Source: Gemmatimonadota bacterium (GTDB lineage: Bacteria; Gemmatimonadota; Gemmatimonadetes; Gemmatimonadales; Gemmatimonadaceae). Taken from it: a stretch of 64,000 nucleotides of DNA. A program made the translations under genes and the position numbers. Of the stretch, positions 36,714 through 45,850 are shown in pieces (position 1 is the first letter of the stretch; every line of letters starts with the position of its first letter). The notes under the pieces were generated by a model, which was not told the DNA's origin, did no database searches, and saw only the letters and a program-made list of their open reading frames with translations. The DNA lies in the NCBI GenBank assembly GCA_021298395.1, contig JAJTFH010000002.1, positions 1 to 64,000 of the forward strand. Direction: 5' to 3'.

Positions 36714-36736
36714 GGCGACGGTCTCAGACCGTCGCC
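36714..36736. terminator. Bidirectional hairpin, symporter / sugar kinase
   Basis: Perfect 11-bp arms GGCGACGGTCT and AGACCGTCGCC around a single C. It starts 15 bases after the symporter stop and includes the stop codon of the convergent kinase gene. Confidence 0.65.
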
Positions 36737-37647
36737 AACGCCTTCCGCCCGACCTTCACCGCGCCGCGCGCCGCATCGATCGCGTCGCCATGCAGATGCG
36801 ACCCCGGCACCGCGGTCTTCAACCGGTGCTCCACGAGGCGCCGGAGGAAGCTTCCGCGCCGCAGCATCCCGCCGGCCAGCGCCACCGGCACTGACGCGCG
36901 TTCATCGACGAAGAGTTGGCGCGCCAAGGTGCGCACATGCACCACGAGTTCCTCGGCTGCCATCGTGCAGAGGGAGTTCGCGCGCAGGTCGCCATCGGCG
37001 GCGAGGGTCATCGCCGGCTCGGCGAGCTGCGCCAGATCCCGCGGCGTCGCATGGGCGGCCCAGCGGATCAGACCATCGACCTCGTCGAGCTGAAGCGCGG
37101 TGAGGATCGCCCCCACGAGCCGCGTCTCGGGCTCCCGGCCATCGTGTGAGGCGGTCACGATGCTCAGGATGCGGCGCCCCATCCAGGCCCCGCTCCCCTC
37201 ATCCCCGCAGTGCGGCCCCCATCCGCCGCAGCGAAGGAAGGTCCCCGTCGGCCCTCGCCCGAAGGCGACCGAGCCCGTCCCGCCGATCAACAGGATCCCG
37301 GCGCCATCACCGAAGGCATCCTCGAGGGCGATCTCAGCGTCGGTCGTCACGATGACCTCCTCGGCGAGCGACTGTCCCTTCAAGGCGCGCAGGAGTGCCT
37401 TCCGTTCGGCGTCCTGCCCAGCACCCGCGACCCCCACACATAGCAGGCGCGGCGTCTCCTCCTGGCCTGCTTGCGTCAGCGCATCACGCACCAGCCCGCC
37501 GATCACCTCGGCGGAGTGCAGGGACTCACCGGGACGGAGCGCGCTCCCCTCACCGGTCAGCGAGGCAAGGACCTTCCCGCGGCCATCGGCGACCTCGACC
37601 GCGGTCTTGCTCCCCCCTCCATCGACTCCCACGACCAGATGCGACAT
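36724..37647 (-). CDS. BadF/BadG-type amino-sugar kinase (GlcNAc/MurNAc kinase-like)
   Basis: A 307-residue ASKHA-fold kinase. The phosphate-1 motif is VGVDGGGSKTAVEV at the start, IGGTGSVAFG is the second phosphate motif, and CGGWGPHCGDEGSGAWMG is typical of N-acetylglucosamine kinases and of MurK, which phosphorylates N-acetylmuramate and N-acetylglucosamine. It is the last gene of an operon after a sodium:solute symporter (18-base gap) and the NagB-PIG-L fusion, which supports an amino-sugar substrate. No MurQ etherase gene is in view. Confidence 0.85.
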   Translation of the reverse strand: MSHLVVGVDGGGSKTAVEVADGRGKVLASLTGEGSALRPGESLHSAEVIGGLVRDALTQAGQEETPRLLCVGVAGAGQDAERKALLRALKGQSLAEEVIVTTDAEIALEDAFGDGAGILLIGGTGSVAFGRGPTGTFLRCGGWGPHCGDEGSGAWMGRRILSIVTASHDGREPETRLVGAILTALQLDEVDGLIRWAAHATPRDLAQLAEPAMTLAADGDLRANSLCTMAAEELVVHVRTLARQLFVDERASVPVALAGGMLRRGSFLRRLVEHRLKTAVPGSHLHGDAIDAARGAVKVGRKALATV

Positions 37648-44554: not shown

Positions 44555-45850
44555 CTCGGACGGTGGGGCGTGAAGGTGGCAGGAGTGATGCTCTGTGCGG
44601 GAGCGGTCGCGGCCTGTGCGTCGCGCACGCCAGCCCAAGGTATGCCGGCCAAGCCGCCGGCGGTGCGTCCCGGGATGACGGTCCTGCTCGAGGATTCGCT
44701 GCAGGTGATCGCGGGACGTCGCATCGCGCTCATCACCAACCATACGACCGTCGATGCCTCGGGGACGCATCTCATCGACGTGCTGCAGCAGGATCCGCGC
44801 CTGAAGCGCGCGAACGTCACGTTGGTCCGGCTCTTCTCGCCGGAGCACGGGATCCGTGGCGATGTGGATCGCGAGAATCTCCCGGACCAGCTCGATGAGC
44901 GATCGGGGCTGATGGTGCACTCGCTGTACACGAATGGCACGGTGCCCCCGCCCGACAGCTTGCTGCGGGACCTCGATGCGCTGGTCTTCGATCTGCAGGA
45001 CATCGGGACGCGCACCTGGACCTATGTGGGAGTGATGGTCTACGGGATGCGCGCCGCGGCGCGCGCTGGGATCCCCTACATCGTGCTCGACCGACCGAAC
45101 CCGATCACCGGGCGCATGGAGGCCCCGCTCCTCGACTCGGCCCTCTCGAACCCGGAGGATCCCACCCCGACCCGTCGGGGACTCGCCTTCGCATTATATC
45201 CCGCGCCGTTGAGGCACGGAATGACGAATGGGGAGATGGCGCGCTGGTTCGCCGCGGAGCTGGGGATCCCCGTGCAGCTCACGGTGGTGCCGATGCAGGG
45301 ATGGCGCCGCACGATGTGGTGGGACGAGACGGGGCTCCCGTGGGTGGTCCCGTCGCCGGCGATGGCGACGGTGACGAGCGCGCTCGTCTATCCGGCGCTC
45401 GTCCCCTTGGAGGGGACCAACGTCTCCGTGGGGCGGGGGACCAAGGCCCCGTTCCAGCGGTTCGGCGCGCCGTGGATGGATGCGCCGCGCCTCGCCACCA
45501 TGCTCAATGAGCTCGGGTTCGTCGGGGTGCGCTTCGAGGCGGAGCGCTTCACCCCGCGTGAGTCCCCCGACCGCAAGTTCAATGACCGAGAGATCCCCGG
45601 GGTGAAGATCGTGGTGACCGACCGCGATCGGGCGCCGATGGGACGCGTGGGGGCGGCGGTCCTCTGGTCCCTCAAGAAGGTCCACGCCGATTCGCTCCGG
45701 GTCACCGAACGGACGGTCGATCAGCGCTTTGGATCGATGGCGGCGCGGCAGGCCCTCTTCGCCGGCACCGATCCCGATGAGGTGATCGACGCGATGCAGC
45801 CCGCGGTCGCCGCCTTCCAGCGGAAGGTGCGGCCCTACCTCCTCTACTGA
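44546..45850 (+). CDS. namZ: DUF1343 protein, NamZ-type exo-beta-N-acetylmuramidase
   Basis: A 434-residue exported protein of the DUF1343 family, whose Bacillus member NamZ releases terminal N-acetylmuramate from glycan chains. Typical segments are IALITNHTTVDASG, LFSPEHGIRGD, DALVFDLQDIGTRTWTY and VLDRPNPITG. The lipobox is VAAC. GTG 44546 follows GGGAGG by four bases; GTG 44570 would avoid an eight-base overlap with the divergent GH3 gene. NagZ-like and NamZ activities are complementary on alternating GlcNAc-MurNAc chains, which supports a shared role. Confidence 0.88.
   Translation: MHHLGRWGVKVAGVMLCAGAVAACASRTPAQGMPAKPPAVRPGMTVLLEDSLQVIAGRRIALITNHTTVDASGTHLIDVLQQDPRLKRANVTLVRLFSPEHGIRGDVDRENLPDQLDERSGLMVHSLYTNGTVPPPDSLLRDLDALVFDLQDIGTRTWTYVGVMVYGMRAAARAGIPYIVLDRPNPITGRMEAPLLDSALSNPEDPTPTRRGLAFALYPAPLRHGMTNGEMARWFAAELGIPVQLTVVPMQGWRRTMWWDETGLPWVVPSPAMATVTSALVYPALVPLEGTNVSVGRGTKAPFQRFGAPWMDAPRLATMLNELGFVGVRFEAERFTPRESPDRKFNDREIPGVKIVVTDRDRAPMGRVGAAVLWSLKKVHADSLRVTERTVDQRFGSMAARQALFAGTDPDEVIDAMQPAVAAFQRKVRPYLLY

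What the first reader, a model, noticed from the sequence alone, without database searches (positions are those of the whole stretch)
36724..45850. Candidate peptidoglycan amino-sugar salvage locus
Outside the cytoplasm a GH3 beta-N-acetylglucosaminidase (fused to a beta-lactamase-like domain) and a NamZ-type exo-N-acetylmuramidase could strip alternating GlcNAc and MurNAc from wall glycan. An SSS symporter next to a BadF-type kinase parallels the MurT-MurK pair of Tannerella. The NagB-PIG-L fusion would then deacetylate and deaminate GlcNAc-6-phosphate. No MurQ, NagA or PTS gene is seen, so this would be a PTS-free, NagA-free route.
Basis: partly seen in the sequence, partly recalled or inferred. 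Interest (0 to 1): 0.65.

Follow-up and report, generated by a model that had tools for sequence, protein, structure and literature searches.

The report
Peptidoglycan sugar salvage locus, NagA-free
A gene block in a small Gemmatimonadaceae bacterium looks like a kit for stripping and re-using cell-wall sugars, known in outline from Bacillus and Tannerella, in which a fused two-domain enzyme probably replaces a standard enzyme (NagA) that was not found in any of 249 genomes sampled from the phylum.

Summary
The gene calls hold: BadF-type kinase, SSS symporter, NagB-PIG-L fusion, ErpA, GH3-beta-lactamase fusion (all minus strand), and a divergent NamZ lipoprotein.

(1) The genome does have MurQ, beside AnmK on another contig, so the route is not MurQ-free.

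(2) NagA really is missing: 0 of 249 phylum genomes pass the NagA cut-off, while 157 carry the fusion. Six genomes of one distant family have NagA-like proteins and no fusion.

(3) The "beta-lactamase" is best read as an AmiE-like MurNAc-L-Ala amidase, which makes the hydrolases a NamZ/NagZ/AmiE muropeptide-rescue set. AmiE orthology was not tested directly.

(4) The kinase is nearest to the dual GlcNAc/MurNAc kinase of Clostridium, not Tannerella MurK.

(5) Linkage is conserved, but unrelated flanking genes are as conserved. The kinase is in 65 of 65 genomes tested. In ten inspected blocks the fusion is missing while ErpA, SSS and BadF remain.

So this is a salvage core plus an optional exit in which PIG-L probably replaces NagA. 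It is a new variant of a known kind. Substrates are inferred; nothing was assayed.

The parts
36724..37647 (-). BadF-type sugar 6-kinase, inferred GlcNAc/MurNAc kinase
   Evidence: PF01869 105 bits; best PDB match C. acetobutylicum MurK 8zo3, 120.6 bits; orthologue found in 65 of 65 family genomes tested
37666..39195 (-). SSS (sodium:solute symporter) transporter, inferred amino-sugar importer
   Evidence: PF00474 133 bits; best PDB match the putative sodium:solute symporter 5nv9, 161 bits; start overlaps the fusion stop by 14 nt
39182..41071 (-). NagB-PIG-L fusion: GlcN-6-P deaminase half plus Zn de-N-acetylase half, inferred GlcNAc-6-P to Fru-6-P converter
   Evidence: NF002557 857 bits; active-site and Zn residues invariant in 35 sequences; AF2 model pLDDT 84; NagB half matches 2bkv, PIG-L half matches diacetylchitobiose deacetylases
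41176..41532 (-). ErpA/HesB-type Fe-S insertion protein, probably a bystander housekeeping gene, always next to the block
   Evidence: TIGR00049 119 bits; present in all 26 relatives that have SSS+BadF downstream of the fusion
41627..44551 (-). Exported GH3 beta-N-acetylglucosaminidase (NagZ-type) fused to a serine hydrolase of the beta-lactamase fold (AmiE-like)
   Evidence: PF00933 277 bits, PF00144 213 bits; NagZ signature KHFPGHGDTDTDSH, SLTK and YSD/HTG motifs; architecture of RmNag3 (PMC6987092)
44546..45850 (+). NamZ (GH171) exo-beta-N-acetylmuramidase, lipoprotein signal (VAAC lipobox), divergent from GH3-Bla
   Evidence: PF07075 213 bits + PF20732 132 bits; solved homologues 4k05, 4jja

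Best explanation
The block is a muropeptide and wall-sugar salvage core with a catabolic exit. In the periplasm, NamZ (lipoprotein) and the exported NagZ-AmiE-type fusion release MurNAc, GlcNAc and peptide from peptidoglycan fragments. The SSS symporter imports the free amino sugars with Na+, and the BadF kinase makes GlcNAc-6-P (and plausibly MurNAc-6-P). MurQ, encoded elsewhere beside AnmK, turns MurNAc-6-P into GlcNAc-6-P. The NagB-PIG-L fusion then deacetylates GlcNAc-6-P (PIG-L half, in place of NagA) and deaminates GlcN-6-P to Fru-6-P (NagB half). Shown: domain content, catalytic motifs, gene order, presence of MurQ/AnmK, absence of NagA, conservation. Inferred: substrates of the transporter and kinase, the amidase role of the beta-lactamase domain, GlcNAc-6-P as the PIG-L substrate, and co-transcription.
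For: Domains and motifs. The GH3-Bla architecture is RmNag3, an active beta-GlcNAcase (PMC6987092). B. subtilis has amiE-nagZ-ybbC(namZ) in one operon with murQRP (PMC5061867); here the Bla gene stays in place even without the GH3 domain. MurQ and AnmK in the genome. NagA 0 of 249 over cut-off against fusion 157 of 249; the six genomes with NagA-like proteins lack the fusion. The fusion is the only NagB match in the genome; the only other PIG-L found is BshB1. In Hymenobacter and Fibrella the fusion lies in GH18/GH20 or GH20 sugar loci with no nagA annotated nearby. The PIG-L half resembles diacetylchitobiose deacetylases. The kinase lacks both published MurNAc-excluding features.
Against: Unrelated flanking genes are equally conserved, so linkage may be plain synteny. 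Fusion-lacking relatives keep kinase, SSS and hydrolases yet have neither NagA nor (in the same-genus genomes G023, G049) any NagB match, so the fate of GlcNAc-6-P there is unknown. In Parabacteroides two nagA genes adjoin a fusion with intact PIG-L but a degenerate NagB site, so PIG-L may have another substrate. AmiE orthology and transporter substrate are untested. The NagB half has Thr where E. coli has Asp141.
Confidence: 0.6

Rival explanations
1. GlcNAc/chito-oligosaccharide use, not peptidoglycan: GH3 releases GlcNAc from chitin fragments, SSS and kinase take GlcNAc, the fusion burns it; NamZ is incidental.
For: RmNag3 hydrolyses chitobiose and chitopentaose (PMC6987092). The fusion sits in chitin-type loci in Hymenobacter and Fibrella, and a SusCD-linked copy was found in G155. 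The own genome has one weak GH18 match (82 bits).
Against: NamZ and the Bla gene are the kept neighbours (21 and 25 of 26), while GH3 is in only 10 of 26. No GH18, GH20 or SusCD was seen in the window block. MurQ is in 57 of 59 family genomes, with AnmK beside it where inspected.
Confidence: 0.22
2. Own-wall recycling with an anabolic end: salvaged sugars re-enter wall synthesis, and the fusion is a dispensable overflow exit rather than the purpose of the locus.
For: Kinase in 65 of 65 genomes including 20 without the fusion; ten inspected blocks lack the fusion but keep ErpA-SSS-BadF; MurQ in 57 of 59 with AnmK beside it where inspected.
Against: No enzyme was identified that would take GlcNAc-6-P into UDP-GlcNAc without deacetylation (not searched for exhaustively); the fusion is kept inside the block in 30 of 65 genomes and apparently re-acquired from elsewhere in at least one.
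Confidence: 0.35
3. The PIG-L half does not act on GlcNAc-6-P but on another N-acetyl sugar, so the missing NagA step is filled by something else or not at all.
For: Parabacteroides has nagA-nagA-fusion with intact PIG-L and a degenerate NagB half. Solved PIG-L relatives act on unphosphorylated diacetylchitobiose.
Against: Covalent link to a largely intact GlcN-6-P deaminase in Gemmatimonadota and Cytophagales, invariant Zn site, and no NagA in fusion carriers of this phylum.
Confidence: 0.27
4. Plain synteny: housekeeping neighbours kept together by slow rearrangement, with no common pathway.
For: The CDP-alcohol phosphatidyltransferase gene is kept as often as Bla (25 of 26), and erpA always lies within the block.
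Against: All five non-ErpA genes belong to one biochemical theme, with tight same-strand spacing (14-nt overlap, 18-nt gap).
Confidence: 0.12

Closest known systems
B. subtilis murQ-murR-murP-amiE-nagZ-namZ (ybbIHFEDC) operon
   Same: Exported NamZ-, NagZ- and (by fold) AmiE-type hydrolases in one cluster feeding amino-sugar uptake and MurQ (PMC5061867).
   Different: NagZ and AmiE-like parts fused; uptake by an SSS symporter plus kinase instead of PTS MurP; murQ on another contig; NagB-PIG-L fusion in place of NagA and NagB; no murR-type regulator seen among the block genes scanned.
Tannerella forsythia MurT-MurK-MurQ
   Same: PTS-independent sodium-symporter-superfamily transporter plus BadF-type 6-kinase plus MurQ (PMC5790795, PMC10465942).
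   Different: Kinase is closer to Clostridium MurK; it lacks the SPL motif; MurQ is unlinked; a catabolic NagB-PIG-L exit is present.
RmNag3 of Rhodothermus marinus (GH3-beta-lactamase)
   Same: Same domain order, exported, beta-N-acetylglucosaminidase (PMC6987092).
   Different: RmNag3 is not reported next to NamZ, SSS or BadF genes.
NF002557 / PRK02122 'glucosamine-6-phosphate deaminase-like protein'
   Same: Whole-length match, 857 bits, NagB plus PIG-L.
   Different: Family already named but no assayed member was found in the papers searched; Bacteroidales members have a degenerate NagB site, this one does not.
Flavobacterium johnsoniae chitin locus NagB (Fjoh_4557)
   Same: NagB in an amino-sugar locus; a possible relative by context.
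   Different: Chitin system; its NagB could not be expressed by the authors (PMC5127042), and its domain content was not checked here.

Membership tests
NF002557 NagB-PIG-L fusion | Full-length match over curated cut-off | tested here: met
   857 vs 384 bits
NF002557 NagB-PIG-L fusion | PIG-L Zn and catalytic residues (HPDD...HGTH) | tested here: met
   H343, D345, D346, H501, H504 invariant in 35 sequences
NF002557 NagB-PIG-L fusion | NagB catalytic residues (E. coli D72, D141, H143, E148) | tested here: inconclusive
   D76, H149 and E154 invariant; the D141 position is Thr in all 35. B. subtilis NagB, a solved deaminase, has Asn there.
NagA GlcNAc-6-P deacetylase | Presence of TIGR00221 over cut-off in the genome or phylum | tested here: not met
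   0 of 59 and 0 of 249
NamZ / GH171 | NamZ_N and NamZ_C domains, export signal | tested here: met
   213 and 132 bits; lipobox VAAC read from the sequence
NagZ-type GH3 (RmNag3 architecture) | K-H-F-P-G-H-G-x4-D-S-H dyad motif and GH3-Bla order | tested here: met
   KHFPGHGDTDTDSH in the window, motif conserved in 12 of 12 fused relatives
AmiE MurNAc-L-Ala amidase | Orthology to B. subtilis AmiE | not tested
   No AmiE sequence was obtained; only the serine-hydrolase fold, SLTK motif and genomic context are seen
AmiE MurNAc-L-Ala amidase | Amidase activity | not testable with these tools
   Needs an enzyme assay
Tannerella-type MurK | S133-P134-L135 pocket | tested here: not met
   Window and relatives have GGW, as in Clostridium MurK
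Tannerella-type MurK | Non-Asn residue (Thr94) before the catalytic Asp | tested here: met
   T in the window, T/A/P/S in relatives, Asn only in the added Clostridium sequence
Clostridium-type MurK / NagK (BadF) | Best match among solved kinases; GGW pocket | tested here: met
   8zo3 120.6 bits, next 1zc6 82.8 bits
NagK_SO3507 equivalog (NF046058) | Score over curated cut-off | tested here: not met
   100 vs 370 bits
SiaT sialate symporter | Carboxylate-binding Arg135 (residue known from memory) | tested here: not met
   Gly aligned at that position with 5nv9
MurNAc catabolic pathway | MurQ etherase in the genome | tested here: met
   365.6 vs 302 bits, G000:C57:19082-19951

The most novel reading that the evidence does not exclude
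In Gemmatimonadota (and probably Cytophagales) NagA has been displaced by a PIG-L/LmbE-type deacetylase fused to NagB, so one polypeptide converts GlcNAc-6-P to Fru-6-P. In this family it is a removable exit module spliced into a peptidoglycan-sugar salvage operon.
Probability: 0.5. Interest if true: 0.6.

Novelty: new variant of a known kind. Interest (0 to 1): 0.45.

Why it matters
NagA is the textbook gateway for GlcNAc-6-P, and annotation pipelines use it to predict amino-sugar and peptidoglycan recycling. A sampled phylum without NagA but with MurQ, AnmK, kinase and a NagB-PIG-L fusion gives a clear, single-enzyme test of non-orthologous replacement. It would also explain a common RefSeq product name, 'glucosamine-6-phosphate deaminase', that ignores the second domain. 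The relatives that lack the fusion yet keep the rest raise a sharp question: where does their GlcNAc-6-P go?

Tried and rejected
MurQ-free route: rejected, MurQ found. AmpG-type anhydromuropeptide permease: no match in the own genome, so uptake of whole muropeptides by that family is not supported. Genome-wide PTS absence: rejected, enzyme I and a mannose-family EIID found; the glucose/GlcNAc-type PTS_EIIC is absent from the own genome. SiaT-like sialate transport: the aligned Arg is not kept. Linkage as sole proof of function: rejected because a control gene is equally linked. Co-inheritance of kinase and fusion: rejected, the kinase is universal in the genomes tested. Papers on a PIG-L-type GlcNAc-6-P deacetylase: none found (open-licence papers only). 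One early search with an irrelevant family served only to get the genome coordinates.

Full report
OBSERVATION. The window lies on contig C10 of a 1.82 Mb genome; the close relatives found by sequence are Gemmatimonadaceae. Every named gene is there. Pfam and NCBIfam confirm the BadF-type kinase, the SSS symporter, a single ORF with NagB and PIG-L domains (NF002557, 857 bits against a cut-off of 384), an ErpA/HesB-type protein, a single ORF with GH3 and beta-lactamase domains, and NamZ with both of its domains. Five genes lie on the minus strand in the order GH3-Bla, erpA, fusion, SSS, BadF. The SSS start overlaps the fusion stop by 14 nt and BadF follows SSS after 18 nt. NamZ is divergent, with a start almost touching that of GH3-Bla and a lipobox (VAAC).

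HYDROLASES. The GH3 part carries the NagZ signature KHFPGHGDTDTDSH, a motif kept in 12 of 12 fused relatives, and the Bla part has SLTK, YSD and HTG motifs, kept in nearly all relatives. The same architecture, RmNag3 of Rhodothermus, is an exported, active beta-N-acetylglucosaminidase; its authors link it to peptidoglycan turnover and compare the set-up with B. subtilis NagZ and AmiE (PMC6987092). In B. subtilis amiE, nagZ and ybbC (later named NamZ) are neighbours downstream of murQRP (PMC5061867; that ybbC is NamZ is from my own knowledge). I therefore read the beta-lactamase-like domain as AmiE-like. In 26 relatives with the block the Bla gene is kept in 25 but GH3 in only 10, so amidase plus NamZ look like the stable pair. 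AmiE orthology itself was not tested.

DOWNSTREAM HALF. The kinase is closest among solved structures to the N-acetylmuramic acid/N-acetylglucosamine kinase 8zo3 (120.6 bits), which I identify with C. acetobutylicum MurK. Clostridium MurK acts on both sugars, whereas Tannerella MurK prefers MurNAc over 60,000-fold (PMC5790795). Two features are said to exclude MurNAc: a bulky residue at TfMurK position 134 and Asn before the catalytic Asp. Neither is present in the block kinases, which have GGW and T/A/P/S. This makes MurNAc use possible, not shown. The SSS protein matches 5nv9 best (161 bits); the sialate-binding Arg is not kept (the role of that Arg, and that 5nv9 is SiaT, are from memory), so it is not a SiaT by that test.

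THE FUSION. In 35 relatives the Zn site (H343, D346, H504), the base D345 and H501 are invariant, as are the NagB residues D76, H149, E154 and K213; the E. coli Asp141 position is Thr in all. The AlphaFold model (pLDDT 84) matches NagB 2bkv (TM 0.93 by target length) and, more weakly, diacetylchitobiose deacetylases (0.63-0.65). The fusion is the only NagB match in the genome, and the only other PIG-L found is BshB1.

NAGA AND MURQ. NagA (TIGR00221) passes its cut-off in 0 of 59 family and 0 of 249 phylum genomes. The fusion passes in 157 of 249. Six genomes of one distant family have NagA-like proteins and only a partial NF002557 match, no fusion over cut-off. The naive Fisher P is 0.002, but those six are one clade, so this counts as about one evolutionary event. 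MurQ, in contrast, is present in 57 of 59 genomes. In this genome it forms a cluster murQ-anmK-GH3 on C57. Enzyme I of the PTS and a mannose-family EIID gene also exist, so 'PTS-free' applies to the locus only.

LINKAGE, WITH A CONTROL. Of 37 relatives with long flanks on both sides, 26 have SSS and BadF directly after the fusion. All 26 have ErpA, 25 Bla, 21 NamZ; the other 11 have none of these. But an unrelated CDP-alcohol phosphatidyltransferase gene is also there in 25 of 26, so the linkage is partly plain synteny. A better test is what happens when the fusion is absent from the block. The kinase is present in 65 of 65 genomes, including all 20 chosen for lacking the fusion. Comparing coordinates, the fusion lies beside BadF in 30 of the 45 carriers tested and elsewhere in 15. 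I fetched ten fusion-free BadF blocks: all keep ErpA-SSS-BadF, and most keep Bla and NamZ. In G155 a different fusion copy, about 60% (NagB) and 47% (PIG-L) identical to the window, lies on another contig next to SusC- and SusD-like genes. The fusion is thus a separable, partly mobile module attached to a stable core.

OTHER PHYLA. In Bacteroidota records the fusion sits in amino-sugar loci with GH18, GH20, SusCD and MFS genes (Hymenobacter), or GH20 and MFS genes (Fibrella), with no nagA annotated nearby. In Parabacteroides two nagA genes adjoin it. In Bacteroides and Parabacteroides the NagB active site is degenerate (Asp72 to Tyr, His143 to Asn) while PIG-L is intact; in Prevotella a separate NagB-like ORF lies just upstream. 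This cuts both ways: PIG-L is the part under lasting selection, but it can coexist with NagA.

INTERPRETATION. The best reading is a salvage core (NamZ, NagZ-AmiE-like, SSS, kinase, with MurQ and AnmK elsewhere) plus a catabolic exit in which PIG-L replaces NagA. Domain content, motifs, distribution and gene order are shown. Substrates, the amidase role, the NagA replacement and co-transcription are inferred. Chito-oligosaccharide use is the main rival; the own genome has one weak GH18 match. The parts are known; their combination and the sampled phylum-wide absence of NagA make this a new variant of a known kind. Paper searches for a PIG-L-type GlcNAc-6-P deacetylase found none, within an open-licence library only.

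Noticed in passing
L141:6522-7898 (G000:C57), beside anmK and murQ: A GH3 NagZ-like protein whose signature reads RHFPGVGRAIEDPR: the His of the catalytic dyad is missing here, while the G004 homologue (L143) has the intact KHFPGHGRTTVDSH.
   Followed up: partly
L161-L163, L169 (genomes G023, G049, G208, G158) and genome G260: Same-genus relatives with the block kinase but no fusion; G023 and G049 have MurQ but no NagA over cut-off and no NagB match at all, so the fate of GlcNAc-6-P is unknown.
   Followed up: partly
L158:8806-10797, L159:8902-10887: Bacteroidales NagB-PIG-L proteins have a degenerate NagB active site but an intact Zn deacetylase site, yet are annotated as glucosamine-6-phosphate deaminase.
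   Followed up: partly
L165:3790-5628, L170:3745-5538, also L027, L044, L048, L058: A second, divergent SSS-family transporter gene lies between the Bla gene and erpA in several relatives, absent from the window.
   Followed up: partly
L171:9421-16407 (G155:C12): A divergent fusion copy followed by SusC- and SusD-like genes, probably horizontally acquired; L070 shows a SusC/SusD-like pair next to its fusion as well.
   Followed up: partly
L054: Contig labelled Candidatus Kuenenia stuttgartiensis carries the Gemmatimonadaceae-type block, probably a mis-binned contig.
   Followed up: no
window 41176-41532: An erpA-like Fe-S gene is always immediately before the fusion in blocks or, where the fusion is absent, before SSS; the reason is unclear.
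   Followed up: no
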